A stretch of DNA of 64,000 nt from Phyllobacterium sp. YR531. Its GTDB lineage: Bacteria > Pseudomonadota > Alphaproteobacteria > Rhizobiales > Rhizobiaceae. Made by a program: the position numbers and the translations under genes. Below are positions 5,381 through 18,628 of the stretch, one piece after another. The stretch spans positions 682,001 through 746,000 of the forward strand of contig NZ_AKIZ01000016.1 in assembly GCF_000282595.1 (NCBI RefSeq). Direction: 5' to 3'. The notes beneath the pieces are model-generated. The model was given only the letters and a program-made list of their open reading frames with translations, did not search any database and was not told the DNA's origin. The stretch's first letter is position 1. Each line of letters starts with the position of its first letter.

Positions 5381-5770
5381 TTTGCCCGTCCTCCTCACTG
5401 TTCTTTGCCATTGATAGAAAAAATTAACTTAGCCCCCTAACTTAAATAAACTTGTTCAAGAGCATTTTTGTTAACAAGCGTGTCGCATTTTTCTAAAACC
5501 GACACTGCCTCAAGTTCAATTTGCCGCGTCGAACAATGTTTTTGTCGTTATTGAAGTAATTTTGAACCGTTCAGGAATACCCCTGAAATTTAGAGTTGCG
5601 CCGAATTGCTAAGCCGCCGAAAAAGTGGTTCACTTGTCGATACTGCTCAGGGAAAGTCTGTTCACCGGCACGTCACAGGTCTGTCATCCAACTGACATGA
5701 GAGACCTATATCGGGTGCTGGAACGTCGGACAAAGAGCCAATGACGTATCGCTCAAACAGGGGTCTAAAA
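5371..5770. other. Intergenic region between efflux operon and ABC importer
   Basis: A short hairpin, CGGGCA-TTAATT-TGCCCG (5371-5388), overlaps the emrB stop codon. It lacks a T-run, so it is at best a weak terminator. The following ~380 bases are AT-rich and presumably hold the promoter for the binding-protein gene. I see no gene or repeat in it. Confidence 0.4.
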
Positions 5771-6874
5771 ATGGTAGGTTACACAAAACGCTTGGTGGCG
5801 CTGTCGACTGCTGTGCTTTTCGCCAGCACGGCAATTTCCTTTGCTGAAGCACCGGCAGAGCTGGTTGCTGCAGCTAAGAAGGAAGGCACACTCACCACAA
5901 TCGCATTGCCGCATGACTGGTGCGCCTATGGCGATATGGTTGCCGGCTTCAAGGCCAAGTATGGCATCGAAGTCAACGAACTGAACCCGGATGCGGGCTC
6001 GGGCGACGAAATCGAAGCTATCAAGGCCAACAAGGACAATAAGGGCCCGCAGGCTCCTGACGTCATCGATGTCGGCTTTGCATTTGGCCCATCTGCCAAG
6101 AAAGACGGCCTGACACAGCCTTACAAAGTATCCACATGGGACTCGATACCTGACAATGTAAAGGACGCTGAAGGTCACTGGTACGGCGACTATTACGGCG
6201 TTCTCTCCTTCCAGGTGAACACTGATATCGTCAAGGAAGTACCAAAGGATTGGGCTGACCTGCTCAAGCCAGAATATGCCAACGCTGTTGCTCTTGCTGG
6301 CGATCCACGCGCTTCCAATCAGGCGATCCTGGCTGTTGGCGCTGCTGGCGTTTCGACCGGCGGCACATATGGCGCGGCAGCTGGTGAAGCTGGCCTCAAA
6401 TACTTTGCTGACCTCAACAAGGCAGGTAACTTCGTTCCTGTTATCGGCAAGTCCGGCACCTTGGCTCAGGGTGCCACACCGATCATCATCAACTGGGATT
6501 ATAACGCGCTTTCCGGCCGTGACACACTCAAGGGCAATCCGCCTGTAGAAGTTGTTGTTCCAGCTTCCGGCGTTGTTGCCGGTGTTTATGTTCAGGCGAT
6601 CAGCGCTTACGCGCCGCATCCAAATGCTGCAAAGCTCTGGATGGAATATCTCTATTCTGATGAAGGTCAGCTGACATGGCTCAAAGGCTATTGCCATCCG
6701 ATCCGTTTCAACGATCTTGCCAAGAACAACAAGATCCCCAAGGAACTGCTCGACAAGCTGCCTCCTGCTGCCGCCTATGAAAAGGCGATCTTCCCAACTC
6801 TCGATGAACAGGCTGCCGCCAAGGAAGTCATTACCAAGGGATGGGACAAGATCGTAGGCGCCAACGTCAAGTAA
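5771..6874 (+). CDS. ABC importer periplasmic binding protein (polyamine/ferric type)
   Basis: Secreted solute-binding protein. From ATG 5771 it has a clean signal peptide (MVGYTKRLVALSTAVLFAST, cleavage near AISFAEA). AGGGG upstream fits this start; an in-frame ATG at 5741 would add 10 residues ahead of the signal. The mature part is a type-2 periplasmic fold (PDVIDVGFAFGPSAKKDGL, KDWADLLKPEYANAVAL, KLWMEYLYSDEGQLTWL), like binding proteins for spermidine/putrescine, iron(III) or 2-aminoethylphosphonate. The following two permeases and ATPase complete the importer. A strong hairpin after its stop likely keeps its expression above that of the membrane parts. The substrate is undetermined; the neighbouring amine-catabolic operon makes an amine plausible, by inference. 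Confidence 0.85.
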   Translation: MVGYTKRLVALSTAVLFASTAISFAEAPAELVAAAKKEGTLTTIALPHDWCAYGDMVAGFKAKYGIEVNELNPDAGSGDEIEAIKANKDNKGPQAPDVIDVGFAFGPSAKKDGLTQPYKVSTWDSIPDNVKDAEGHWYGDYYGVLSFQVNTDIVKEVPKDWADLLKPEYANAVALAGDPRASNQAILAVGAAGVSTGGTYGAAAGEAGLKYFADLNKAGNFVPVIGKSGTLAQGATPIIINWDYNALSGRDTLKGNPPVEVVVPASGVVAGVYVQAISAYAPHPNAAKLWMEYLYSDEGQLTWLKGYCHPIRFNDLAKNNKIPKELLDKLPPAAAYEKAIFPTLDEQAAAKEVITKGWDKIVGANVK

Positions 6875-6886
6875 TACAGGATAGAA

Positions 6887-6913
6887 ATCCCCGCGGTCCG
6901 CCGCGGGGATTTT
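6887..6913 (+). terminator. Strong hairpin with short T-run after the binding-protein gene
   Basis: ATCCCCGCGG (6887-6896) pairs perfectly with CCGCGGGGAT (6901-6910) across a 4-base loop, followed by TTTT. Inside a binding protein-permease operon such hairpins usually act as partial terminators or mRNA stabilisers. Confidence 0.75.
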
Positions 6914-6921
6914 CCATCAAT

Positions 6922-7000
6922 GCTGAAGCCTCTTTGGGAGGCGTTGAATGCTATGATGACCCTGGCTGCATTGCCTTTGCAACTCTCAGGCAAAGGCTGA
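6922..7000 (+). promoter_or_regulatory. Structured leader with a glycine-riboswitch-like 3' segment (tentative)
   Basis: The stretch has GGGAG early and ACTCTCAGGCAAA later (about 6982-6994), the latter being the best-known conserved block of glycine riboswitch aptamers; AGCC and GGCT could close an outer helix. The conserved central GCCGAAGG-type block is not visible, and GCCTTTGC (6973-6980) forms a competing perfect 8-bp hairpin with GCAAAGGC (6990-6997). It could be a degenerate or variant aptamer, or chance. It lies just upstream of the permease gene. Confidence 0.22.
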
Positions 7001-7033
7001 ATATTACTTTATCTAGCGCGGTTCCAGACACCC

Positions 7034-7939
7034 ATGAGTGCAGTTACAGAACAAGACGTTTCACCACCGGTTCCGCCAACGGCGAATGAACGCAAACGCC
7101 TGTCGCTCGACTGGCTCGGCGTTATGCCATTCATCATCTTTGCCGTACTGTTTCTGATCTGGCCGACAATCTATCTGATTGCCGGAGCCTTTCAGGATAA
7201 TCAGGGCAACCTGACACTCGCGAATATTGTGAACCTGTTCCAGCCGTCCATCATGGATGCGTATTGGATTTCCATCAAAATCTCTTTCGCCTCCGCGGTA
7301 CTTGGCGCAGCCATAGGTTTCTGTGTTGCTGCTGCTGTCACACTCGGCGGGCTGCCGGGCTGGATACGCTCGCCGCTGATGACGTTTTCCGGCGTTGCCT
7401 CCAACTTTGCCGGCGTACCATTGGCTTTCGCCTTTCTCGCAACACTTGGCCGTACCGGTCTTGTTACGACATTTCTTTATAATGTCTTTGGCTTCAATCT
7501 TTATGGCCACGGCTTCAATCTGCTCAGCTTCTGGGGCCTGACAATCACCTATCTCTACTTCCAGATTCCACTGATGATCCTCATCATCACACCCGCTCTC
7601 GATGGTTTGAAAAAAGAATGGAAAGAAGCCGCGCTTATTCTCGGCGCAACCGGCCCGCAATATTGGCGGATGGTGGCATTTCCCATTCTCTGGCCTGCAT
7701 TGCTGGGTACAATGCTTCTGCTTTTCGCAAATTCGTTCGGCGCAATCGCAACCGCCTACGCACTCACAGGATCATCGCTCAGCATCGTCCCTATTGTGCT
7801 GTTCGCCCAGATACGTGGTGACGTTTTGCAGGATCCGCATCTTGGATATGCGCTTGCTTTCGGCATGATCGTAATAACCGGCGTTTCCAACGGCATTTAC
7901 ATCTGGATGCGCGCACGCAGCGAACGGTGGCTCAAATGA
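7034..7939 (+). CDS. ABC importer permease 1 (PotB/PotH-like)
   Basis: Inner-membrane permease of 301 residues. A short cytoplasmic N-terminus is followed by six predicted spans, starting LGVMPFIIFAVLFLIWPTIY. The coupling (EAA) loop that docks on the ATPase is WKEAALILGATGPQYWRMVAFPILWPA, near residues 195-221. It belongs to the binding-protein-dependent family that moves polyamines, iron(III) or phosphonates. Its stop overlaps the next permease start (ATGA), indicating coupled translation and a heterodimeric membrane domain. Confidence 0.9.
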   Translation: MSAVTEQDVSPPVPPTANERKRLSLDWLGVMPFIIFAVLFLIWPTIYLIAGAFQDNQGNLTLANIVNLFQPSIMDAYWISIKISFASAVLGAAIGFCVAAAVTLGGLPGWIRSPLMTFSGVASNFAGVPLAFAFLATLGRTGLVTTFLYNVFGFNLYGHGFNLLSFWGLTITYLYFQIPLMILIITPALDGLKKEWKEAALILGATGPQYWRMVAFPILWPALLGTMLLLFANSFGAIATAYALTGSSLSIVPIVLFAQIRGDVLQDPHLGYALAFGMIVITGVSNGIYIWMRARSERWLK

Positions 7940-8727
7940 AAACCAATCGTTTCTGGTCGTGGATCGCCCTTGCGTTTGGCATAATCTATTTCGTTGTGCC
8001 ACTTATCGGCACTCTGGAATTTTCGCTGCGCATGCGCCGCGGCGTCTATTCTCTTGATGCCTATTGGGTCATCCTCAGCGACCCGCGCTTTCAGGCAACA
8101 TTCGGTTATTCCATTGTCATGGCTCTGGTAACGATTGTCGTTGGTATCGTGCTTGTCGTCCCGACTGCCTACTGGGTCCGCCTACGGCTTCCGGGCTGGC
8201 GTCCATTTCTTGAATTCATCACACTTCTGCCGCTGGTCATTCCTGCGATTGTTGTCGTGTTCGGCTACATCCGCCTCTACAACACTTCATCATTTCTGCC
8301 TTTGACCGGCTCTGCCATGGGCACCAACATATTGCTGGTCTTCGGCTATACGATGTTGGCGCTACCTTATATGTATCGTGCGGTTGATACTGGTCTTGGC
8401 GCCATCGATATCCGCACCATGACCGAAGCAGCGGAGAGCCTTGGCGCAAGCCGCGTCAAGATCATGTGGAGTGTCATTCTGCCGAATGTACTCGTTGCCG
8501 TGCTTTCCGGTGCGTTCCTGACCTTTGCCATCGTCATCGGCGAGTTTACCATGGCTGCCCTGCTAAATCGTCCCGCGTTCGGACCATTCCTGCAGCTTAT
8601 AGGCGCAAACCGTGCTTATGAGCCGGCAGCCTTGGCGGTTATTTCCTTTGCAATCACCTGGATTTGCATGGGTCTCATTCAGATTGTCACCCGTCTCAAT
8701 AAATCCCTCGCCGCCACCAAGCGCTAA
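7936..8727 (+). CDS. ABC importer permease 2 (PotC/PotI-like)
   Basis: Second permease of the importer, 263 residues from ATG 7936. I prefer this start over an in-frame GTG at 7927 because it overlaps the upstream stop as ATGA. It has six spans and the EAA loop AESLGASRVKIMWSVILPNV (about residues 157-176). It pairs with permease 1 and precedes the ATPase by 15 bp. Confidence 0.9.
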   Translation: MKTNRFWSWIALAFGIIYFVVPLIGTLEFSLRMRRGVYSLDAYWVILSDPRFQATFGYSIVMALVTIVVGIVLVVPTAYWVRLRLPGWRPFLEFITLLPLVIPAIVVVFGYIRLYNTSSFLPLTGSAMGTNILLVFGYTMLALPYMYRAVDTGLGAIDIRTMTEAAESLGASRVKIMWSVILPNVLVAVLSGAFLTFAIVIGEFTMAALLNRPAFGPFLQLIGANRAYEPAALAVISFAITWICMGLIQIVTRLNKSLAATKR

Positions 8728-8742
8728 GACCGGATAGAAACA

Positions 8743-9807
8743 ATGTCATTTCTCACAATCAGCCATTTGAAAAAGAGCTTCGGAGCGACAACCGTCGTGC
8801 ACGATTTCAATCTCAATATCGAGAAGGGCGAGTTCGTTTCCTTCCTCGGGCCAAGCGGTTGCGGTAAAACAACAGTGCTGCGCATGGTAGCGGGTTTTGA
8901 GACGCCTACTTCCGGGAAGATCAGCATTGGCGGCAAGGATGTGGTGAACCTCAAGCCGAACCAGCGCAACATAGGCATGGTGTTCCAGGCCTATGCCTTG
9001 TTTCCGAATATGACTGTGGCGCAGAATGTCGCGTTCGGACTGAAGGTTGCCAAGAAACCGCAGGGCGAGATCAATGCCACTGTCCATGAAATGCTGTCGC
9101 TGATAAAGCTCGACCATCTGGCTGACCGCTATCCCTATCAGCTTTCGGGCGGACAACAACAACGCGTTGCTCTGGCTCGCGCGCTTGCCACCAAACCGCA
9201 GGTCCTCTTGCTGGATGAGCCGCTGTCTGCGCTTGATGCGAAGATCCGCGTTTCGCTACGTGAAGAAATTCGTGCCATCCAGCGCAAGCTTGGCATCACC
9301 ACTATTTTCGTGACGCATGATCAGGAAGAAGCGCTATCCATTTCCGACCGTATCGTCGTGATGTACGAGGGCAAGGCTGAACAGGTTGGTGCACCCTTTG
9401 AGATTTACAATCATCCGTCATCGCGTTTTGTCGCTTCCTTCGTCGGCACCTTGAACACGCTTGACGCCACCGTTCGCGATGCGGCAGCTGGTGTCATCGC
9501 CATTGATGGCAAGGACGTGACGATTGGCCAGAAGATCACTAATCACAAGGCGGGAGACAAGATTTCATTGGCGGTGCGACCTGAAGCTGTCAGCCTCGGT
9601 GAAGCAACCGACTCCCGCGAAACAACACTGGACGGCAAGATTAACAGCGTTCATTTCCTGGGGTCGGTTATCCGCATCCGCGCCTCGCTGGGAGAGAACA
9701 CAGTCTCTTTTGATACGTTCAACAATCCAAGCGCGCCCCCACCCTCACCCGGCGAAAATGTGAAGGTCAGCCTCGCCGCAAAGGACATGCTGCTGCTGGG
9801 TCAGTAG
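8743..9807 (+). CDS. ABC importer ATPase with TOBE domain (PotA-like)
   Basis: Cytoplasmic ATPase of 354 residues. Walker A GPSGCGKTT is near residues 38-46, the Q-loop at VFQAYALFPN, the signature LSGGQQQRVALARAL, Walker B VLLLDEPLSALD and the switch histidine FVTHDQ. About 110 C-terminal residues form a TOBE-type regulatory domain (AVRPEAVSL and following). The architecture is that of the CUT1/polyamine/iron importer class. It is the last gene of the importer operon, and a bidirectional terminator follows. Confidence 0.93.
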   Translation: MSFLTISHLKKSFGATTVVHDFNLNIEKGEFVSFLGPSGCGKTTVLRMVAGFETPTSGKISIGGKDVVNLKPNQRNIGMVFQAYALFPNMTVAQNVAFGLKVAKKPQGEINATVHEMLSLIKLDHLADRYPYQLSGGQQQRVALARALATKPQVLLLDEPLSALDAKIRVSLREEIRAIQRKLGITTIFVTHDQEEALSISDRIVVMYEGKAEQVGAPFEIYNHPSSRFVASFVGTLNTLDATVRDAAAGVIAIDGKDVTIGQKITNHKAGDKISLAVRPEAVSLGEATDSRETTLDGKINSVHFLGSVIRIRASLGENTVSFDTFNNPSAPPPSPGENVKVSLAAKDMLLLGQ

Positions 9808-9830: not shown

Positions 9831-9858
9831 AAAAGGGCGCCGTTTCCAGCGCCCTTTT
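9831..9858. terminator. Bidirectional rho-independent terminator
   Basis: AAAAGGGCGC (9831-9840) pairs with GCGCCCTTTT (9849-9858) over an 8-base loop. The A-run and T-run flanks let it end both the importer operon (plus strand) and the dehydrogenase operon (minus strand). Confidence 0.9.
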
Positions 9859-9886: not shown

Positions 9887-11053
9887 CTATCCCTTGATTG
9901 CCTCGTCCAGCAGCTTGAGTGCTGCTTGTTTGGTCAGTTCGACAGGGTTTCCGCCTGCCGTTGGATCGACAATCGCCATATCAGCGATCAATTCTTTGCG
10001 TGCATCATCCATGTTCAGATCCTTGATCAAACCCGGTAATGCATGCGGCACCTTCAGCTCCGTGCGCAGATCAATGATCGCCTTGGCAAAACCATCGAAG
10101 CCGCCCTTGATGCCGATATAATTTGCAAGCCGTTCAATACGTTCTTCGATGGCATCGCGGTTGAAAGCCAGCACGTAGGGCATGAATACTGCGTTGGTCA
10201 TGCCATGATGTGTGTCATAAAGCGCGCCGATGGGATGCGACAGCGAATGGATCGCGCCCAGCCCCTTCTGGAACGCCGTCGCGCCCATCGCAGCAGCACT
10301 CATCATATGCGCCCGTGCTGTCAGGTCGCTGCCATTGGCATAGGCTTTCGGCAGGCTTTCGAACACAAGCCGGATGCCCTCCACGGCAATACCGTCTGCC
10401 ATCGGGTGATAGCCCGGCGCGCAATATGCCTCGAGGCAATGAGCCAGAGCGTCCATGCCGGTTCCGGCAGTAATGAATGCTGGCATGCCAACCGACAATT
10501 CCGGATCAGCAATGACAATTGCCGGTAGAAGCTTGGGGTGAAAGATCACTTTCTTGGTATGAGTCGCTTCATTGGTGATAACGCCTGCGCGGCCAACTTC
10601 AGAGCCGGTTCCAGCTGTGGTCGGCACGGCGATGATGGGTGCAATCACATCGCTGTTTGCCCGTGTCCACCAATCGCCAATATCCTCAAAATCCCAGATC
10701 GGACGCGTCTGTCCGGCTTGGAACGCGATCAGCTTGCCGAGATCAAGTGCCGAACCACCGCCAAACGCGATTACGCCATCATGTTTGCCCTGCTTGAATA
10801 CCGCGATACCGGCTGTGAGATTGGAATCCACAGGGTTTGGCTTCACGTCTGAAAACACACCATAGGGAACTTTGGCATCGTCAAGAATTTTCAACGTGCT
10901 TGCCACGACTGGCAGCTTGGCGAGGCCCGGATCAGTAACGAATAGCGGGTTTTTGATTCCGGTAGCCTCGAGAACTTCCGGCAGTTCCTTGATGCGTCCT
11001 GCACCAAACCGCACAGTCGTTGGGTAATTCCATTTGGAAATGAGCTGGCTCAT
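9887..11053 (-). CDS. Iron-containing (group III) alcohol dehydrogenase
   Basis: NAD(P)-dependent metal alcohol dehydrogenase of 388 residues. The N-terminal nucleotide-binding half has the GGGSALDLGK motif (about residues 97-106) and the pocket VPTTAGTGSEV. The metal ligands are in GTGMDALAHCLEAY (Asp, His) and IHSLSHPIGALYDTHHG (two His). It is the last gene of a five-gene minus-strand operon, 11 bp after the aldehyde dehydrogenase. Pairing with a glutamine-synthetase-like ligase suggests it oxidises the free hydroxyl of a gamma-glutamylated amino alcohol to the aldehyde; that is inference. The substrate cannot be read from the sequence. Confidence 0.9.
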   Translation of the reverse strand: MSQLISKWNYPTTVRFGAGRIKELPEVLEATGIKNPLFVTDPGLAKLPVVASTLKILDDAKVPYGVFSDVKPNPVDSNLTAGIAVFKQGKHDGVIAFGGGSALDLGKLIAFQAGQTRPIWDFEDIGDWWTRANSDVIAPIIAVPTTAGTGSEVGRAGVITNEATHTKKVIFHPKLLPAIVIADPELSVGMPAFITAGTGMDALAHCLEAYCAPGYHPMADGIAVEGIRLVFESLPKAYANGSDLTARAHMMSAAAMGATAFQKGLGAIHSLSHPIGALYDTHHGMTNAVFMPYVLAFNRDAIEERIERLANYIGIKGGFDGFAKAIIDLRTELKVPHALPGLIKDLNMDDARKELIADMAIVDPTAGGNPVELTKQAALKLLDEAIKG

Positions 11054-11064
11054 AATATTCTCTC

Positions 11065-12450
11065 TTAGATTTCTTCACGCAAATGATAGGACTTCGGCCG
11101 GGTAAGATTCCCGTATCCGATACCCGACATGGCAGCGCCCTTGCCGGTATCCTTGACACCCGTCCAGACAAGAGCCGGATCTATATAATCGCAGCGATTC
11201 ATGAACACTGTACCGGTCTCGATCCTGTCGCCGATCAAAGCCGCGTGATCCGTATCGGTCGTCCACAATGATGCCGTCAGGCCATAAGGGCTGTCATTCA
11301 TCAGGGCCACAGCTTCCTCGTCATTGCGTACCTTCATGATGCCAACGATTGGCCCGAAACTTTCTTCGCGCATGACGCTCATCTGGTGGTCAACATTGGT
11401 CAGCACTTCCGGGGCAAGATAGGGCGAACCAGCCTTGTCGTTTGCAACGCTCATATTGACATGAGCCTTGGCGCCCTTGCGTAGCGCCTCTGCCTTCTGC
11501 TCACGCACAAGCTCGGCAAAACGTGTCTGTGCCATCGGTCCCATCGTCGTTGCCTGATCCAGCGGATTGCCTACGACATATTGCTTGGTCAGATCGATGA
11601 ACCCATCAACGAAGCGGTCATAGACCTTCTCATGCACATAAATGCGCTCGATACCACAGCAGCACTGTCCGGAGTTGAAGAATGCGCCGTCTACGAGATT
11701 GGCAACCGCGTGATCGAGGTTGACATCAGGCAGCACATAGGCCGGATCTTTGCCACCAAGCTCCAGACCCAAGGTCATGAATGTGCCGGCCGCCGCCTTT
11801 TCGATAGCGCGACCGCCACCGACCGAACCGGTGAAGTTCACATGGTCGATACGGCCTGAAGCCAGCAGTTTTTCCGTCTGCGTGTGACCCAGAACGATGT
11901 TCTGAAACACGCCCTTTGGCAGACCGGCCTTTTCGAAAGCCTGTGCAAAACGCTCACCGACAAGCAAAGTCTGTGCGGCATGCTTCAGGATAACACTATT
12001 GCCAGCCATCAGAGCAGGAATGATCGTATTGACCGCTGTGAGATAGGGATAGTTCCAAGGCGCAATCACCATGACAACACCAAGTGGCACATGTTTGATA
12101 TAACGACGGAAACCCGGCCTGTCATTTTCGATGACAGGTGCAAGCGCCTGCTCGGCAATCTTGACCATATAGCGCGTGCGCTCTTCGACGCCGCCCTTTT
12201 CGCCGCCATAGCGAACGGGTCGTCCCATCTGCCAGGCAATCTCCGGCACAATTTCATCATTCATCGCCAGCAATGCATCAAGCGCTGCGAGGCAAAGGCG
12301 CCCACGCTCAGCAATGCTCGTCTGCGCCCACTCAGCTTGCGCCTGCTTTGCAGACTCAACTGCGACGTCAATCGCCTTGTCGCTGGCAATGGGACGCTCG
12401 GCATAGACCGTGCCATCGATGGGCGTAATCAGTTTGACCGTGTCGGCCAT
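11065..12450 (-). CDS. Aldehyde dehydrogenase (NAD(P)+)
   Basis: Oxidises an aldehyde to the acid; 461 residues, slightly short for the family because the N-terminal arm is brief. The catalytic cysteine lies in FFNSGQCCCGIERIYV (three Cys in a row, the middle or last being the family nucleophile), the general base glutamate in LGLELGGKDPAYV, the cofactor segment in VMVIAPWNYPYL, and the Rossmann GSVGGGRAI. GAGG precedes the ATG. In the operon it follows the ligase and precedes the alcohol dehydrogenase, so the logical reaction is gamma-glutamyl-aminoaldehyde to gamma-glutamyl-amino acid, as PuuC does in E. coli. Confidence 0.92.
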   Translation of the reverse strand: MADTVKLITPIDGTVYAERPIASDKAIDVAVESAKQAQAEWAQTSIAERGRLCLAALDALLAMNDEIVPEIAWQMGRPVRYGGEKGGVEERTRYMVKIAEQALAPVIENDRPGFRRYIKHVPLGVVMVIAPWNYPYLTAVNTIIPALMAGNSVILKHAAQTLLVGERFAQAFEKAGLPKGVFQNIVLGHTQTEKLLASGRIDHVNFTGSVGGGRAIEKAAAGTFMTLGLELGGKDPAYVLPDVNLDHAVANLVDGAFFNSGQCCCGIERIYVHEKVYDRFVDGFIDLTKQYVVGNPLDQATTMGPMAQTRFAELVREQKAEALRKGAKAHVNMSVANDKAGSPYLAPEVLTNVDHQMSVMREESFGPIVGIMKVRNDEEAVALMNDSPYGLTASLWTTDTDHAALIGDRIETGTVFMNRCDYIDPALVWTGVKDTGKGAAMSGIGYGNLTRPKSYHLREEI

Positions 12451-12488
12451 ATCAAAACCTCTAGTCTGCTTCTGTTATTTTCAGCTCT

Positions 12489-13859
12489 TCAATACCGTTC
12501 GAAGCCGCGATGCAACTCCCAATCGGTTACCCGGCGATCATATTCAAACTGTTCCCACTTTGCGGTGTGGACATAGTGCTCAACCACATCTTCGCCAAGC
12601 GCTTCCTTGAGCATTTTCGAGCGCGCAAGAGTGTCGGTTGCCTCGCGCAATGTCTTTGGAATCTCGCGTAGTTTTGCACCACCATAGGCGTCGCCCTGAA
12701 AAGGCTTGCCCAGTTCCAGCTTTTCATCGATACCGGCGAGGCCCGAGGCAATGAGCCCGGCAAATGCGAGATATGGATTGAGGTCGGCACCGCCAATACG
12801 GCATTCGATACGGATTGCCTTGGAACCCTCACCGCAAAGACGGAAACCAGCTGTGCGGTTATCGAGGCTCCAGACATTCTTTGTCGGCGCGAACGTTCCA
12901 GCCTGAAAGCGCTTGTAGGAGTTGATGTACGGAGCGAGGAAATATGTGAAGTCGTCCGCATATTTCAGCTGTCCTGCCACCCACTGCCGCATCAATGGCG
13001 ACATGGTGTATTCCGCATTCTTGTCATAGAAAAGCGGCGTCTTGCCGTCGGCACTCCATAGCGAATTGTGAACATGGCTTGAGCTTCCGGCCAGCGAATA
13101 ATCATACTTCGCCATGAACGTAATCGCCTTGCCCATCTGAGTGGCGATTTCCTTGCAGCCATTCTTCATGACCACATGGCGGTCGGCCATTTCCAGCGCT
13201 TCGGCATAGCGCACATTGATTTCTTCCTGACCTGGGCCCCATTCACCCTTGGAGTTTTCGACTGGAATACCCGCATCGAAAAGACCATTGCGGATGGCGC
13301 GCATCACTGCGTCTTCCTTCGTGGTCATCTGGATCACATAATCCTGAATATAGGGCGAAGCGGTCGTCATGCCCTTCCAGTGCTTGGCGCGGGCGGTCTC
13401 ATAGGTTTCGTCGAAGAGATAGAACTCCAGCTCCGAGGCAAAGTAGGCGAGATAACCGCGATCTTTCAAACGGGCGAGCTGGCGCTTGAGAATGGCGCGC
13501 GGCGAATGCGAAAGGTCTTCATGATGGTGGTGGTCAAGAATGTCACATAACACCAGCGCGCATTTCTCAAGCCATGGGATATGGCGGATGGTTGTCAGGT
13601 CAGGCTTGATGACGAAATCACCATAACCCTGTTTCCAGCTCGCTGCCTTATAACCCGGCACCGGCTCCATATCGATATCGTTGGCCAGCAGGTAGTTGCA
13701 GCCATGCGTCTCGTCATGCGCGGATTCAACGAAAAAACTTCCGTGAAACCGCTTGCCGATCAACCGGCCTTGCATATCGACGAAACAGGCCAGAATCGTA
13801 TCGATTTCACCGCTGCTTACGCGGCTTTTCAGTTCGTCGAAACTCCAATGTCCGGGCAT
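12489..13859 (-). CDS. Glutamine-synthetase-family gamma-glutamyl-amine ligase (PuuA/GlnT-like)
   Basis: ATP-dependent ligase of 456 residues that should join glutamate to an amine. The glutamine synthetase core is intact: metal-binding glutamates in ASELEFYLFD, GPGQEEINVRYAEALEMAD, the nucleotide/glutamate site GSSSHVHNSLW, SLDNRTAGFRL, and RIECRIGGADLNPYLAF. It lacks the features of the housekeeping GlnA (length, adenylylation-site tyrosine segment). Such proteins act on putrescine (E. coli PuuA), ethanolamine (Streptomyces GlnA4) or other amines. It sits between an APC permease and two dehydrogenases. No PuuB-type oxidase or PuuD hydrolase is present, so putrescine is a less likely substrate than an amine bearing an alcohol. 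Confidence 0.88.
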   Translation of the reverse strand: MPGHWSFDELKSRVSSGEIDTILACFVDMQGRLIGKRFHGSFFVESAHDETHGCNYLLANDIDMEPVPGYKAASWKQGYGDFVIKPDLTTIRHIPWLEKCALVLCDILDHHHHEDLSHSPRAILKRQLARLKDRGYLAYFASELEFYLFDETYETARAKHWKGMTTASPYIQDYVIQMTTKEDAVMRAIRNGLFDAGIPVENSKGEWGPGQEEINVRYAEALEMADRHVVMKNGCKEIATQMGKAITFMAKYDYSLAGSSSHVHNSLWSADGKTPLFYDKNAEYTMSPLMRQWVAGQLKYADDFTYFLAPYINSYKRFQAGTFAPTKNVWSLDNRTAGFRLCGEGSKAIRIECRIGGADLNPYLAFAGLIASGLAGIDEKLELGKPFQGDAYGGAKLREIPKTLREATDTLARSKMLKEALGEDVVEHYVHTAKWEQFEYDRRVTDWELHRGFERY

Positions 13860-13934
13860 AACATATCCTCAAAAGCGTCAAACTGGGTCAAGAGTAGGGG
13901 CGACCGGCAGGAACCGGCCGCCCCGTTGTTGAGA

Positions 13935-15488
13935 TCAGGCTTTCTCGCCGACTGCCAATTCAGCTGCAGCAATTTCTGCGGCACGGCGGGCTACTTCGTC
14001 GCCGATTGGAGGACCACGGAAGCGGCGCTTTTCAAACAGGAACCAGACCAGTGCCGTGATCACAAGAAATCCGACAGTGATATAGAGCGCCCATTCGTTT
14101 GGCGGCTGAATACCGAGGACGAAGATCAAAGCCATAGCGAGGATCGAGAGCACTGCAAACAGCTTGAACTTACCTTCGCCCATATCCCACGGCCCCATCT
14201 TGTTCCATTTCGGTGTGCCCCAGGCAAAAAGGCCAAGTGCAATCGGTATGGCGAAAGAGAAGAAGAGGAAGATAACCGTGCAGGAAACAACGATCGTATA
14301 AACCGGTGTTTCACCGATTGTCACAAGCGAAGAACCCCAGACAAACAGAACGGCAAGCGTTGAGCCTGTCCAGATCGCGGAGACCGGAGTGCGGTATTTC
14401 GGGCTTACTTTGGAAAGTGCCTTGGATGCCGGAAGTCCCTTGTCACGCGCAAAAGCGAAGATCATGCGCGACACTGATGTCACCGTGGCAAGTCCGCAAA
14501 GGAACTGGCAGATGAAAATCAGGAAGTAGAGAATGTCCTTTACAAGCGGATTAACCTGCTCATTCATGGCCCAGAAGAAAACATTCCAGCCTTGTGCCGC
14601 TGCTGCATCCATGTTTGGAATCATCAACACAAACGAGCAGAGCATGATGTAGCCGAATACAGCTGACCACAGAACTGACGATATCATGCCGCGTGGAACG
14701 GAATGGGCTGCGCGGACGGTTTCTTCCGATGTATGCGCTGAGGCGTCATAGCCGGTAATCGTATAGACCGGCAGCAACAGGCCAAGCAAAAAGACCCAGG
14801 TTCCGGAAGTCGTCGGCCAGACATTTCCGCCAGCTTCTCCGGAATAGTTGGAGAATGTGAAAAGGCGGGCAAAATCATATCCATCAGCCACAGCCAGACA
14901 CACCACGGATAGCGCAATGGCTGTCACAAAGATGAGATAGCCGGAGAAGTCCGTCAATTTGGCTGTCAGACCGATACCCATATGGTTGATGAGCGCCTGA
15001 GCGCCTGTCAAAATCACCAGAAACACCACACGGACAGCCGTTGAATCGGCAATACCGAGATATTCACCGAACGCACCGATGAAGAAGTAATAAGTGCCGA
15101 CATTGATTGCGCCGAGCACTGTAATCAACCCCAGCAGGTTGAACCATGCGGTCAGCCAGCCAGTACCGCGATTACCAAGGATCGACCCCCAGTGATAAAG
15201 TCCGCCTGCTGTCGGATAGGCCGAACTGATCTGCGCCATGGCGATGGCGAACACTGCCGAGACAAGACAGCCCAGCGGCCAGCCAATGCCGATTGCGGCA
15301 CCGCCAGCCCCAGAGGTTGCCTGCGCCAGCGAATTGATACCGCCAGATAGAATGCAGATGATTGAGAATGAGATTGCAAAGTTGGAAAATCGGCTCATTC
15401 GCCGTTCCAGCTCCTGGGCATAGCCCATGCCGTGGAGAACTTTCACGTCCTCCGATTTATCTGTGTCCGAGTAGTCCTGGTGTGTCAT
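13935..15488 (-). CDS. APC-superfamily amino acid/amine permease (ACT-like)
   Basis: Inner-membrane symporter of 517 residues with about 12 spans. The N-terminus (GYAQELERRMSRFSNFAISFSIICILSG) and YPTAGGLYHWGSILG are the hallmarks of the amino acid/choline transporter group, which includes GABA, choline and ethanolamine permeases. ATG 15488 is preferred to the adjacent GTG 15491 because of the AGGGGAAC spacing. Its place in the ligase operon suggests it imports the amine. The substrate is inferred, not shown. Confidence 0.88.
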   Translation of the reverse strand: MTHQDYSDTDKSEDVKVLHGMGYAQELERRMSRFSNFAISFSIICILSGGINSLAQATSGAGGAAIGIGWPLGCLVSAVFAIAMAQISSAYPTAGGLYHWGSILGNRGTGWLTAWFNLLGLITVLGAINVGTYYFFIGAFGEYLGIADSTAVRVVFLVILTGAQALINHMGIGLTAKLTDFSGYLIFVTAIALSVVCLAVADGYDFARLFTFSNYSGEAGGNVWPTTSGTWVFLLGLLLPVYTITGYDASAHTSEETVRAAHSVPRGMISSVLWSAVFGYIMLCSFVLMIPNMDAAAAQGWNVFFWAMNEQVNPLVKDILYFLIFICQFLCGLATVTSVSRMIFAFARDKGLPASKALSKVSPKYRTPVSAIWTGSTLAVLFVWGSSLVTIGETPVYTIVVSCTVIFLFFSFAIPIALGLFAWGTPKWNKMGPWDMGEGKFKLFAVLSILAMALIFVLGIQPPNEWALYITVGFLVITALVWFLFEKRRFRGPPIGDEVARRAAEIAAAELAVGEKA

Positions 15489-15542
15489 CACGTTCCCCTG
15501 TTATTCTTGAAAGAGTTACAACGTCGATAGCAGCGTCAGTAT

Positions 15543-16364
15543 CTAGATTCCCTTGTTTGCCGTCCCCGCAATGCCCATCGAAGGGCCTTTTGTTATATCG
15601 TTCAGAAGGCCCGAGAGCAGTTCGCCCCAACCCTTCTCCTCTTGAGCTGTCGCCACGAGATCATTGCGGATCTCGATCATCACAGCCGGTAGTCCATGGG
15701 CAGAAGCATGCCGCTCCAGCGTGTAATAAACACGATCTGCCGGTGAATAAGGTTCATTGATTCCAACTTCATAGCGGCCCGCAGCCTGCAGGCCGGCAAT
15801 CAGCGGTGCAGCAACGCGATCATCGGCATCATGGATAATCCCGATATGCCACGGACGCTCAACACCGCGATAAACTGGCGTGTAGGTATGAACTGCGACA
15901 AAGACTGGCTCTGGCAGTCCAGCGGCCCTGCGTTCCCGCACCAATTTTTCAATGGCTGCATGATAGGGCTTATGCGAAAGCTCAACGCGTTCGCGCCGTG
16001 CCGCGTCACCCAGATTCTCATTGGCCGGAATGACTGTGACTTCACTTAAAGAAGGCACCAGATCCGGCGCATCGAGCGGTCTGTTGCAGTCGATGATCAG
16101 GCGCGACACGCAAGATTCGACAAGTGGCGCGTCAAGCAGCCTGCTCATGACCGCGCTAACACCCAGCGCACCGGGGTCCCAGGCGATATGCTTTTGCAGG
16201 TCATTATCTCGCAAGCCCAGCGTACCGAAATCTACAGGCACATAATTGGACGCGTGATCGCAAAGAATAATGCATGGACCCGCACCATTCGGATTTGTTA
16301 CCCGAACTGGAGTCCAGTCTTTTGATAATGCCTGCGGCGCACCGCTCGCTATGGTCTGACCCAT
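15543..16364 (-). CDS. N-formylglutamate amidohydrolase-family hydrolase
   Basis: Zinc amidohydrolase-like protein of 273 residues (FGase family). Conserved segments include IILCDHASNYVP (His and Asp near the start), RLLDAPLVESCVSRLIIDCNRP, VAVHTYTPVYRGVERPWHIG and LPAVMIEIRNDL. N-formylglutamate deformylase cleaves an amide on a glutamate, so in this operon it could instead release glutamate from a gamma-glutamyl product; this role is inferred. ATG 16364 with AAAAAGGG upstream is preferred to the in-frame TTG at 16382. It is the first gene of the operon, divergent from rpiR. No hut (histidine degradation) gene is nearby. Confidence 0.85.
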   Translation of the reverse strand: MGQTIASGAPQALSKDWTPVRVTNPNGAGPCIILCDHASNYVPVDFGTLGLRDNDLQKHIAWDPGALGVSAVMSRLLDAPLVESCVSRLIIDCNRPLDAPDLVPSLSEVTVIPANENLGDAARRERVELSHKPYHAAIEKLVRERRAAGLPEPVFVAVHTYTPVYRGVERPWHIGIIHDADDRVAAPLIAGLQAAGRYEVGINEPYSPADRVYYTLERHASAHGLPAVMIEIRNDLVATAQEEKGWGELLSGLLNDITKGPSMGIAGTANKGI

Positions 16365-16501
16365 TTTTGCCCTTTTTGGCAAACTGTACTTTACGTTACA
16401 TTTTGTATTTTTATTTCCACTCTCGTATGATTTGATACATAACGATCAAAATTGTCAAATCCGAAATTAATGAATCACAATTCGGCCGGGGGGAAACATT
16501 C

Positions 16502-17335
16502 ATGAGCACCAGCATTTCTGAGCTGATCGCAGAAAAGATTGACGCGATGCCGGCCTCGGAACGCAGGGCAGCCCAGACATTGATCGCCAATTATCCATTG
16601 ATAGGCCTGCGCACGGTGGCGGAGTTTTCCGGTCAGGCTGGCGTTTCCTCGCCGACAATCCTGCGGTTTGTCGCGCGCCTCGGTTTTCAAAGTTATCCTG
16701 AGTTTCAAAACGCATTGCAGGAAGAACTGGCGGCACAGGTACAATCACCCTGGAATCGTGCAGCCAGCATTCAGAGCCCCAAAGGCGGCGCAGCATTTCC
16801 GCTTATGGAAGCGGCAATCGAAAACATCCGCGAGACGTTTCAGCACCTTTCAGCCCAGCAACTTGATGATGTGACAAATGCCATCAGCCGAAATCGCTCA
16901 CGGCTCTACCTGCTCGGCGGACGCTTCACCGATCCTATAGCCACCTATATGGCCGCCCATCTCAAGATTGTGCGCTCCGGTGTCACCCATCTTGCAGGTC
17001 AGGAAAGCCACTGGCGCGATCAGCTGATCGACATGGGCAAGAAGGATGTGCTGATTGTTTTTGATATTCGCCGCTATCAGGAAAGCCTGTTGCGTTTTGC
17101 CGAAAAAGCGCAGGCGCGCGGCGTCGAAATCGTGCTTGTCACCGATCAGTGGCTTTCACCGATTGCACGTTTCGCCCGCCATGTCATTGCAGGAAGAACC
17201 GCCGTACCCTCACCTTGGGATTCCTCGTCGGCCCTGTTCCTGATTGCGGAAACGCTGGTTGCAGAAGTTACCCGCAAGCTTGAACAGAGCGGCGCTGATC
17301 GTATCCGCGATCTCGAGCAATTGCGGGATAATTAG
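16502..17335 (+). CDS. MurR/RpiR-family transcriptional regulator
   Basis: Regulator of 277 residues. An N-terminal HTH_6 domain (ASERRAAQTLIANYPLIGL, SPTILRFVARLGFQSYPEFQ, residues 18-75) is followed by a SIS domain (NRSRLYLLGGRFTDPIATYMA, KKDVLIVFDIRRYQESLLRFAEKA) that in this family senses a phosphosugar or small ligand. GGGGGGA precedes the start. It is divergent from the five-gene ligase/dehydrogenase operon, separated by 137 bp of AT-rich promoter-like DNA, and is therefore its likely regulator. RpiR proteins beside amine-catabolism genes are less common than beside sugar genes. Confidence 0.9.
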   Translation: MSTSISELIAEKIDAMPASERRAAQTLIANYPLIGLRTVAEFSGQAGVSSPTILRFVARLGFQSYPEFQNALQEELAAQVQSPWNRAASIQSPKGGAAFPLMEAAIENIRETFQHLSAQQLDDVTNAISRNRSRLYLLGGRFTDPIATYMAAHLKIVRSGVTHLAGQESHWRDQLIDMGKKDVLIVFDIRRYQESLLRFAEKAQARGVEIVLVTDQWLSPIARFARHVIAGRTAVPSPWDSSSALFLIAETLVAEVTRKLEQSGADRIRDLEQLRDN

Positions 17336-17337
17336 CG

Positions 17338-18399
17338 CTACGACGGACCGTCAGCGATCTCCTGTGCCTCAACCTTGATTGGTTTATACTTGAAAGTCGC
17401 GCAGATTATGCCGTGATCATTCGTGCCGGATTCCTTGTGATCATCGAAATTAAGATGATCATTATTCACCGTCATCCCGTCGAACATCCAGACCCGCCGC
17501 TTTGAGTTGTCGTAAAACTCTTCGCTCACCAGAATATGGTCAAGCGACTCCATAATGTCCCGATGAATATGGGTATAATAAACATCGCGCGTACTGCGAT
17601 ATTCCTGAAGGGTCTGGGCGGTATAGAGACTGACATCGCCACCGCCAAGTGAATCTCCAACCAGATAGCGCGGCTGCTCCGTCAGAATGTTTGCAGTATT
17701 GCTGTGCTGACCATCATTGATATCGCCAAGAACAATGACAGGCGTCCGGCTGCCCTTCATCTGTTCCGTCAAAAGGAAACGCAGTGCTGCGGCTTCCGCC
17801 GTCCGGCGGATAGTGGAGATTGCTGCGCCGATATTTGTGGCATGCTTCTTGTAGGTGGTTTGATCCGCTTTGAACCATGCCTCCTTGAACACCTGTGTCG
17901 GCCCCTTGGATTTGAAATGGCAGACATAGACATGAACCGGCTCATGATCCTCACGTGGCCGCACTTGAAAATGCAGAACAGGGCGGGAAAAGCTGGGGAT
18001 GGAAACGCTGATTGCCGGAGTCTGCGGATCATCACCCGAGCTTTTCAGAACAAACTTTTCCGGAAAGTTTTCGATCCATTCCGGTTGTCCGGTCAATAAT
18101 CCTTTGCGGACCAGAGCGGCGCATACAATGCGAGTGCCATTGGCTGTCCCCGGTACCACCAGATCATACTCAGCCGCCAGGCCGGATGCTTCAAGTGCAC
18201 GCGTAATTGACGTTGGGTGCCATAGCTCTTGAAATCCAAAAATATCCGGCCTTAACAGCCGAATGGACCGGCTCGTCCATTCGATCTTCCGTTCGTATTC
18301 TTCCTGCGTCCAGCCATCCTTATCGGTGTAAATCGGCACGCCCGGTTCGTTCAGATTGTAGAGATTGAATGTACCTATGCTCAAATGTTTGAGTTTCAT
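17338..18399 (-). CDS. Endonuclease/exonuclease/phosphatase-family protein
   Basis: Protein of 353 residues with the EEP fold. Active-site landmarks are IGTFNLYNLN (Asn), DIFGFQELWHP (Glu metal ligand), VYVCHFKSKG (His), PVIVLGDINDGQHS (Asp/Asn) and the C-terminal NDHLNFDDHKESGTNDHGII (Asp-His pair). It has no signal peptide, so it is probably cytoplasmic. GAGGAATTATC upstream supports ATG 18399 over an ATG at 18414. It converges on rpiR with 2 bp between the stops. The substrate could be a nucleic acid, phospholipid or inositol phosphate; the sequence does not decide. Confidence 0.82.
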   Translation of the reverse strand: MKLKHLSIGTFNLYNLNEPGVPIYTDKDGWTQEEYERKIEWTSRSIRLLRPDIFGFQELWHPTSITRALEASGLAAEYDLVVPGTANGTRIVCAALVRKGLLTGQPEWIENFPEKFVLKSSGDDPQTPAISVSIPSFSRPVLHFQVRPREDHEPVHVYVCHFKSKGPTQVFKEAWFKADQTTYKKHATNIGAAISTIRRTAEAAALRFLLTEQMKGSRTPVIVLGDINDGQHSNTANILTEQPRYLVGDSLGGGDVSLYTAQTLQEYRSTRDVYYTHIHRDIMESLDHILVSEEFYDNSKRRVWMFDGMTVNNDHLNFDDHKESGTNDHGIICATFKYKPIKVEAQEIADGPS

Positions 18400-18628
18400 G
18401 ATAATTCCTCGCAACCAAATGGCTTAAAAATAATATCATATCAAAAGATGCATTACGCGCGGATGACATTCAAAGTTCGCGATTGGACCGTCGAAATTTC
18501 TTCATTTGCCATTGCCGCCAACGCACATTGATATACTAATGCTGTCCCGGGACCGGAAGACCGGCAAGGCCCTCCGCCCGCAGGAATATTTCGCTTTATG
18601 CCCCTATTGAATGTGTAAGGACAAAATC

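What the first reader, a model, noticed from the sequence alone, without database searches (positions are those of the whole stretch)
9887..17335. Five-gene operon for a gamma-glutamylation route of an amino alcohol or similar amine, with RpiR control
Seen: FGase-family hydrolase, ACT-type permease, glutamine-synthetase-like ligase, aldehyde dehydrogenase and iron-type alcohol dehydrogenase lie head to tail on one strand, opposite a divergent RpiR gene. Known: E. coli uses PuuA (ligase), PuuB (oxidase), PuuC (dehydrogenase) and PuuD (hydrolase) for putrescine, and Streptomyces GlnA4 makes gamma-glutamylethanolamide. Inferred: PuuB is replaced by an alcohol dehydrogenase, so the oxidised group should be an alcohol, and PuuD is replaced by a formylglutamate-amidohydrolase-type enzyme. 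Ethanolamine, propanolamine or 3-aminopropanol would fit, giving glycine or beta-alanine plus glutamate at the end. This combination is not a textbook pathway.
Basis: partly seen in the sequence, partly recalled or inferred. Interest (0 to 1): 0.75.

Follow-up and report, generated by a model that had tools for sequence, protein, structure and literature searches.

The report
Ethanolamine breakdown operon in Phyllobacterium
This is a plant-associated soil bacterium's copy of a gene set, already described in a few other bacteria, that tags the membrane building block ethanolamine with glutamate and turns it into glycine; it looks like a sound new example with a swapped transporter rather than a new pathway.

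Summary
In detail: five genes head to tail (FGase, APC permease, glutamine-synthetase-like ligase, aldehyde dehydrogenase, iron alcohol dehydrogenase) opposite a divergent RpiR gene. The genus is Phyllobacterium; 20 of 20 genomes examined hold the whole arrangement. The inferred mechanism is very probably right, with ethanolamine as substrate: gamma-glutamylethanolamide, then aldehyde, then gamma-glutamylglycine, then glutamate + glycine. But it is not new. A 2022 review lists the same four enzyme families for Chromohalobacter salexigens, and a 2023 paper describes the RpiR-flanked operon in Phaeobacter (proteins more abundant on phosphorylethanolamine; binding protein with measured ethanolamine affinity), calling the C. 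salexigens and Agrobacterium tumefaciens genes demonstrated. The ligase groups with 5dm3 (taken to be the C. salexigens enzyme), apart from GlnA, PuuA and IpuC. Of the 11 nearest named loci outside the genus, 6 carry the ethanolamine-type TRAP transporter where Phyllobacterium has a permease; 5 carry the permease. Glycine-using genes beside related clusters (three plasmids; Nonomuraea) favour glycine as product. Not shown: enzyme activity, induction or transcription in Phyllobacterium. Side leads: the neighbouring ABC importer, and relatives of the ligase in rhizobitoxine-type clusters.

The parts
16502..17335 (+). RpiR-family regulator (HTH_6 + SIS), divergent from the operon
   Evidence: Pfam PF01418, PF01380; divergent in 20 of 20 genus loci (the window, and 19 others)
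16425..16438 (-). candidate RpiR operator GTATCAAATCATAC between RpiR and FGase
   Evidence: exact in 19 of 20 Phyllobacterium intergenic regions, one mismatch in the other; only match in the window at up to 1 mismatch, where 27 of 100 shuffles also had at least one; 2 matches of GTATCAAATNATNC in the whole genome, 0 for the reversed control. Binding untested
15543..16364 (-). FGase-family hydrolase, proposed gamma-glutamylglycine amidohydrolase (TTG start at 16382 also possible)
   Evidence: PF05013 147.8 bits; only solved relative found is 2odf, Atu2144; no NCBIfam family at E <= 0.001
13935..15491 (-). APC-superfamily permease, proposed ethanolamine uptake
   Evidence: PF13520; TIGR00907 subfamily, below its cut-off; sits where relatives have TRAP genes or a TIGR00908-like ethanolamine permease
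12489..13859 (-). glutamine-synthetase-like ligase, proposed ethanolamine gamma-glutamylase
   Evidence: PF00120; 56.5% identical to 5dm3 and 75.8% to 11zs; trees and flap residue
11065..12450 (-). aldehyde dehydrogenase, proposed dehydrogenase of the gamma-glutamyl aldehyde
   Evidence: PF00171 404.5 bits; none of the 25 NCBIfam families shown, of 44 matched, reaches its cut-off
9887..11053 (-). iron-type alcohol dehydrogenase, proposed gamma-glutamylethanolamide dehydrogenase
   Evidence: PF00465 + PF25137; no NCBIfam family above cut-off, 15 matched; near the ligase in 66 of 66 named loci with flank
9831..9858 (.). probable bidirectional terminator between the operon and the convergent ABC cassette
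   Evidence: 10-12 bp stem with A/T ends, z -3.7 (+) and -4.1 (-), 0 of 200 shuffles as stable on either strand; not listed by the consensus terminator scan
5741..9807 (+). ABC importer cassette (SBP_bac_6 binding protein, two permeases, ATPase), convergent neighbour; link to the pathway unproven
   Evidence: PF13343 for the binding protein; beside the operon in 20 of 20 genus loci and in 12 of 12 genomes of the window's family that have it, but 0 of 51 outside the family (compared by hand)

Best explanation
An RpiR-linked operon for use of ethanolamine as nitrogen and carbon source. The APC permease brings ethanolamine in; the ligase joins it to the gamma-carboxyl of glutamate with ATP (gamma-glutamylethanolamide); the iron alcohol dehydrogenase oxidises the hydroxyl to the aldehyde; the aldehyde dehydrogenase makes gamma-glutamylglycine; the FGase-family enzyme releases glutamate and glycine. 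Masking the amine avoids a free amino-aldehyde. RpiR probably acts at GTATCAAATCATAC in the divergent promoter region. Shown here: gene content, order, conservation, homology and shared gene order with published ethanolamine operons, non-housekeeping nature of the ligase. Inferred: every reaction in this species, the permease substrate, the RpiR ligand and its site.
For: (1) Same four families in a published ethanolamine pathway: PF00120, PF00465, PF00171, PF05013 for C. salexigens (PMC9397018 Table 2; the review's text says 'proposed'). Phaeobacter gene order RpiR, GGAH, EtoV, EtoW, EtoX, ETAGA, GAADDH, GETADH, with five of these proteins raised on phosphorylethanolamine and EtoX ethanolamine Kd 7.9 uM; the same paper calls the C. 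salexigens and A. tumefaciens C58 genes 'demonstrated to function' (PMC10132767, passages). (2) Ligase in a supported group (SH-aLRT 99) with 5dm3 and with Agrobacterium, Sinorhizobium, Paracoccus and Ruegeria operon ligases, outside PuuA, IpuC and an own-genome paralogue (57 rows) and outside own and E. coli GlnA (43 rows). (3) Of the 11 nearest named loci outside the genus (L063-L073, ligase 75-79%), 6 (L064-L068, L072) have TRAP genes in the permease position and 5 (L063, L069, L070, L071, L073) have the permease; the Ochrobactrum TRAP protein matches 4uab at 512 bits. (4) Other loci have a TIGR00908 ethanolamine permease: L057 above cut-off (436 against 382), L088 just below (359). (5) Glycine-using genes beside related clusters: bhcABCD on L047 and L053, bhcBCD on L052, GcvT and L-serine ammonia-lyase on L142. 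(6) No EutB in this genome; present in 2 of 19 genus genomes searched.
Against: No experiment in Phyllobacterium. The permease is not the TRAP system whose ligand is known, and no TRAP homologue was found in 19 genus genomes (the tool notes that without a positive genome an empty answer shows little). Ligase position 175, near the amine pocket, is His in 5dm3 and 63 of 103 aligned ligases but Val here, though Val also occurs in three loci with TRAP genes. No NCBIfam family fits the ligase, dehydrogenases or hydrolase above its cut-off. 14 of 66 named loci lack a nearby FGase and 10 of 66 any of the three transporter types. The promoter scan found no more sites than shuffles (5 against 5.7).
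Confidence: 0.88

Rival explanations
1. The same chemistry on a different amino alcohol (1-amino-2-propanol, 3-amino-1-propanol, serinol, alaninol) in Phyllobacterium, the permease and ligase pocket having shifted.
For: Val instead of His at ligase position 175 and an APC permease in place of the ethanolamine-type TRAP system; relatives of the ligase (62-65%) sit in clusters that look like rhizobitoxine biosynthesis, whose chemistry involves the amino alcohol serinol (PMC3222319, title and start of abstract in the listing; the rest recalled).
Against: Val175 also occurs in L064, L066 and L067, which keep the ethanolamine-type TRAP genes. Neighbours of related clusters point to glycine, though only in relatives. 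Genes for other products were not searched for systematically.
Confidence: 0.08
2. Putrescine or polyamine route of the Puu type.
For: A GS-like ligase, ALDH and permease also occur in the E. coli puu genes.
Against: No PuuB-type oxidase or PuuD-type hydrolase in the five genes; ligase 31% identical to E. coli PuuA and far below the gamma-glutamylputrescine synthetase cut-off (208 against 650 bits).
Confidence: 0.02
3. Housekeeping glutamine synthetase with unrelated dehydrogenases nearby by chance.
For: Member of PF00120; in one of three trees the own GlnA fell inside the family on a branch of length 10.
Against: Flap glutamate replaced by Phe; own GlnA is a separate gene, 29% identical over the aligned part, and pairs with E. 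coli GlnA once that is added; Fe-ADH is near the ligase in 66 of 66 and ALDH in 64 of 66 named loci.
Confidence: 0.01

Closest known systems
Ethanolamine gamma-glutamylation operon of Phaeobacter sp. MED193 (RpiR, GGAH, EtoVWX, ETAGA, GAADDH, GETADH; PMC10132767, passages read)
   Same: RpiR gene, then gamma-glutamylglycine amidohydrolase, transporter, ligase, aldehyde dehydrogenase, alcohol dehydrogenase, in the same order
   Different: APC permease instead of the TRAP transporter; convergent ABC importer cassette beside it. The MED193 proteins themselves were not compared here
Chromohalobacter salexigens / Agrobacterium tumefaciens C58 ethanolamine pathway (Vetting et al. 2015, not held; known here through PMC10132767 and PMC9397018)
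   Same: PF00120, PF00465, PF00171, PF05013; ligase 56.5% identical to 5dm3; hydrolase related to Atu2144 (2odf)
   Different: transporter type; the Agrobacterium loci seen here (L088, L094) carry a TIGR00908-like permease
GlnA4 cluster of Streptomyces coelicolor SCO1610-1615 (PMC6529630, sections read)
   Same: gamma-glutamylethanolamide synthetase as first step, aldehyde dehydrogenase, same predicted end products
   Different: short-chain dehydrogenase instead of Fe-ADH and a glutamine-amidotransferase-type hydrolase instead of FGase; different regulator
E. coli puu genes
   Same: gamma-glutamylation logic, ALDH, permease
   Different: PuuB oxidase and PuuD hydrolase; ligase only 31% identical

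Membership tests
Ethanolamine gamma-glutamylation operon (Fe-ADH/FGase type) | ligase, Fe-ADH, ALDH and FGase in one cluster | tested here: met
   20 of 20 genus loci (plus the window)
Ethanolamine gamma-glutamylation operon (Fe-ADH/FGase type) | ligase groups with known ethanolamine-operon ligases, not with GlnA, PuuA or IpuC | tested here: met
   quick trees, SH-aLRT 99 for the group with 5dm3. Deep branches are long; the first tree misplaced the lone GlnA. That 5dm3 is the C. salexigens enzyme is recalled
Ethanolamine gamma-glutamylation operon (Fe-ADH/FGase type) | RpiR regulator beside it | tested here: met
   RpiR near in 50 of 66 named loci
Ethanolamine gamma-glutamylation operon (Fe-ADH/FGase type) | EtoVWX TRAP transporter | tested here: not met
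   APC permease instead; no TRAP match in 19 genus genomes. Apparently not obligatory: 32 of 66 named loci have TRAP, 19 the APC permease, 5 an eat-like permease, 10 none of these
Ethanolamine gamma-glutamylation operon (Fe-ADH/FGase type) | ligase acts on ethanolamine; operon induced by it | not testable with these tools
   needs assay or expression data
Streptomyces GlnA4 cluster | short-chain dehydrogenase and amidotransferase-type hydrolase | tested here: not met
   neither among the five genes; seen in L058, L141 and L142 instead
Puu pathway | PuuB oxidase and PuuD hydrolase | tested here: not met
   neither among the five genes
Housekeeping GlnA | flap glutamate (E327 of the Salmonella enzyme, as described in PMC6529630) | tested here: not met
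   Phe323 here, Glu328 in the own GlnA

The most novel reading that the evidence does not exclude
In the family that holds Phyllobacterium, Mesorhizobium and the rhizobia, the ethanolamine operon is paired with an ABC importer for an ethanolamine-containing compound such as phosphoethanolamine or glycerophosphoethanolamine, so that the locus handles a whole phospholipid head group rather than only free ethanolamine. The binding protein's weak solved relatives include ones named for 2-aminoethylphosphonate, pyridoxal phosphate and iron, and the cassette keeps beside the operon in three different arrangements. Against it: no operator motif before the cassette, and the cassette stands alone outside the family.
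Probability: 0.15. Interest if true: 0.45.

Novelty: new member of a known kind. Interest (0 to 1): 0.22.

Why it matters
It places a eut-independent ethanolamine route throughout a plant-associated genus in which 17 of 19 genomes searched lack the ethanolamine ammonia-lyase large subunit, and lets proteins now labelled 'glutamine synthetase', 'N-formylglutamate amidohydrolase' and 'alcohol dehydrogenase' be named properly in related bacteria. The swapping of transporter, dehydrogenase and hydrolase around one ligase family is a useful annotation lesson. The beta-hydroxyaspartate-cycle plasmids and the rhizobitoxine-type clusters are leads beyond the known pathway.

Tried and rejected
Phosphoesterase-family gene at 17338-18414 (PF03372) as a head-group esterase: no homologue covering half its length at E <= 1e-15 in the 19 other genus loci or the other loci held then. 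This says nothing about the rest of those genomes.

ABC cassette in the same RpiR regulon: the operator motif was not found in 300 bases upstream of the binding-protein gene in 20 of 20 genus loci (best 3 to 6 mismatches; 100 shuffles per locus reach 2 to 4). Ten loci outside the family showed no obvious shared metabolic neighbour, judged by eye from open-frame starts without a family scan. 21 of the 51 non-family genomes that have the cassette lack the ligase at E <= 1e-120 (compared by hand).

Operator in other genera: the 32-base Phyllobacterium motif beat all 100 shuffles in 6 of 58 other intergenic regions (L044, L064, L065, L068, L117, L135), so it is a genus and near-relative feature at most.

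Trees: the first (59 rows, careful search unfinished, quick tree shown) put the own GlnA inside the family on a branch of length 10. The second dropped own GlnA and a second Rhodococcus ligase (57 rows). The third added E. coli GlnA, kept own GlnA and dropped that Rhodococcus row and 16 relatives for speed (43 rows). own_L004 was left out of all three, and 46 of the 80 named loci were left out of the first two.

Paper searches with nothing to the point: no paper; one, unrelated; three, listing only. One search listed 15 of 30 papers; one of them, PMC11021832, a review of plastic recycling that was not opened, holds both 'hydroxyaspartate' and 'ethanolamine'; none listed appears from title or abstract to link the two pathways. 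The library holds open-licence papers only.
Full report
What is there. Window 9887-17335 holds, on the minus strand and in transcription order, an FGase-family hydrolase, an APC-superfamily permease, a glutamine-synthetase-like ligase, an aldehyde dehydrogenase and an iron-type alcohol dehydrogenase, with an RpiR gene divergent from them. Gaps of 51, 75, 38 and 11 bases suit one transcript. A hairpin at 9831-9858, between the operon and the convergent ABC cassette at 5741-9807, folds on both strands better than all 200 shuffles, though the consensus scan did not list it, and that scan found no more promoter-like sites than shuffles. The hydrolase more likely starts at ATG 16364 than at TTG 16382 (by eye).

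Where it comes from. The nearest named ligases are from Phyllobacterium (95%, L061 and L062). One unnamed congener, G013, has the same match place and contig length as Phyllobacterium sp. 628. All 20 genus genomes searched, own included, hold the ligase at 93-100% identity. The window and the 19 fetched loci, 20 of 20, show RpiR, FGase, permease, ligase, ALDH, Fe-ADH and the convergent ABC cassette in the same order.

It is a known pathway. A review (PMC9397018, passages read) tabulates ethanolamine use in Chromohalobacter salexigens by PF00120, PF00465, PF00171 and PF05013, the four enzyme families here, with glycine and glutamate as end products; [quoted passage not shown] A 2023 paper (PMC10132767, passages read) describes the Phaeobacter sp. 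MED193 genes in order: RpiR, gamma-glutamylglycine amidohydrolase, EtoV, EtoW, EtoX, ethanolamine gamma-glutamylase, gamma-glutamyl aldehyde dehydrogenase, gamma-glutamylethanolamide dehydrogenase. Five of these proteins rise on phosphorylethanolamine, and EtoX binds ethanolamine with a Kd of 7.9 uM; its figure calls the pathway predicted. It states that related genes were 'demonstrated to function' in C. salexigens and Agrobacterium tumefaciens C58, citing Vetting et al., which is not held. Streptomyces coelicolor GlnA4 performs the first step (PMC6529630, sections read).

Is the window a member? The ligase is 56.5% identical to 5dm3, which I take to be the C. salexigens enzyme (recalled; the PDB table says only 'L-glutamine synthetase'), and 75.8% to 11zs, an entry closest to an Ochrobactrum ligase. 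In a quick tree of 57 ligases it falls in a 47-row group (SH-aLRT 99) with 5dm3 and the operon ligases of Agrobacterium, Sinorhizobium, Paracoccus and Ruegeria; E. coli PuuA, IpuC and an own-genome paralogue lie outside on long branches. A first tree with the own GlnA as its only housekeeping member put it inside the family on a branch of length 10; with E. coli GlnA added, the two GlnAs pair (99) outside. Where the own GlnA has the flap glutamate (E328), the window ligase has Phe323, as the 2019 paper reports for GlnA4 (F331). The Agrobacterium leguminum hydrolase matches Atu2144 (2odf) along all 257 residues, and the window hydrolase finds the same entry as its only solved relative.

The transporter varies. 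Of 80 named loci chosen by the ligase alone, 66 have at least 7 kb upstream and 4.5 kb downstream. Among these Fe-ADH is near in 66, ALDH in 64, FGase in 52, RpiR in 50, the TRAP transporter in 32, the APC permease in 19, an eat-like permease in 5, and none of the three in 10. Of the 11 nearest loci outside the genus (L063-L073), the Brucella-group ones (L064, L066, L067, L072), Aminobacter ciceronei (L065) and Aquibium (L068) have TRAP genes, and the five Mesorhizobium ones have the permease. The Ochrobactrum TRAP protein matches 4uab at 512 bits; that 4uab is the ethanolamine-binding Csal_0678 protein is recalled. No TRAP homologue was found in 19 Phyllobacterium genomes. The simplest reading is that the permease stands in for the TRAP system.

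Neighbours point to glycine. On three plasmids (Aminobacter NyZ550 pMET3, A. aminovorans pAA03, Paracoccus pantotrophus) the operon, there without the permease, sits beside genes of the beta-hydroxyaspartate cycle, which handles glyoxylate and glycine (BhcA, BhcB and BhcC of pMET3 exceed their NCBIfam cut-offs; the P. pantotrophus stretch lacks bhcA). The three ligases form one tight group (100), so this may be one event spread by transfer. In Nonomuraea the related ligase-ALDH-SDR-GATase cluster is followed by GcvT and L-serine ammonia-lyase. None of the 66 named loci has a bhcB homologue of at least 50% identity in the flank held; L129 has distant ones at 32%.

Alternatives within the family. 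Arthrobacter, Embleya, Nonomuraea, Thermomicrobium and Allomeiothermus clusters have a short-chain dehydrogenase and no Fe-ADH hit, and the first three a GATase-type hydrolase, as in the published Streptomyces cluster. Thermomicrobium has an ethanolamine permease above the NCBIfam cut-off. Interchange of unrelated enzymes around one ligase family supports the order of reactions.

Regulation. GTATCAAATCATAC lies at 16425-16438 in the divergent promoter region, exact in 19 of 20 Phyllobacterium loci and one mismatch off in the other, in a region whose ends drift. It is the only match in the window, but 27 of 100 shuffles also hold one when a mismatch is allowed; the weight is on conservation. 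GTATCAAATNATNC occurs twice in the genome, against none for the reversed control. Binding is untested.

The ABC cassette. It adjoins the operon in 12 of 12 genomes of the window's family that have it and in 0 of 51 outside the family (compared by hand; draft contigs limit the second count). It is near in 24 of 80 named loci, in three arrangements: convergent downstream (2), co-directional downstream (7), divergent upstream (15). Its binding protein belongs to SBP_bac_6 and weakly resembles 2-aminoethylphosphonate binding proteins, far below their cut-offs. The operator motif is absent from its upstream region. The link is suggestive, not established.

Verdict. Observation confirmed; mechanism supported with ethanolamine as substrate at about 0.88; novelty low. 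No EutB was found in this genome and in 17 of 19 genus genomes searched, own included, so this may well be the main ethanolamine route in the genus.

Noticed in passing
L047 10148-23567; L052; L053: Plasmid-borne ethanolamine operon directly beside beta-hydroxyaspartate-cycle genes, with an FAD oxidoreductase distantly like D-amino acid dehydrogenase and glycine oxidase on L047 and L053: an ethanolamine-to-oxaloacetate module is possible. No paper linking the two was evident among the 15 of 30 listed.
   Followed up: partly
L046 7989-9347; L048 7998-9350: Ligases 62-65% identical to the window's lie in clusters of Paraburkholderia and Robbsia with a desaturase and a PuuD-like hydrolase; in the related B. 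phymatum a paper calls such an operon putative rhizobitoxine biosynthesis (PMC5789663, passages). They nest inside the ethanolamine-ligase group, suggesting recruitment to glutamylate an amino alcohol such as serinol.
   Followed up: partly
window 5741-9807: ABC importer cassette kept beside the operon in the window's family in three arrangements, but a stand-alone cassette in the ten outside loci read.
   Followed up: partly
window 17338-18414: Exo_endo_phos-family gene next to RpiR that is absent from the same place in the 19 other genus loci.
   Followed up: partly
L076, L077, L079, L083, L084: Pseudomonas ligase-ALDH-Fe-ADH clusters, ligase about 70% identical to the window's, without a nearby FGase or RpiR; the hydrolase there is unidentified.
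   Followed up: partly
L056 5005-14334: Rhizobium sp. CB3171 ligase (52%) beside an ALDH and a gene annotated as N,N-dimethylformamidase beta subunit, with FGase, APC permease and aminotransferase on the other strand: a different substrate is likely.
   Followed up: no
PDB 11zs: Solved structure 91% identical to an Ochrobactrum operon ligase, named only 'Glutamine synthetase, catalytic domain'; probably an ethanolamine gamma-glutamylase.
   Followed up: partly
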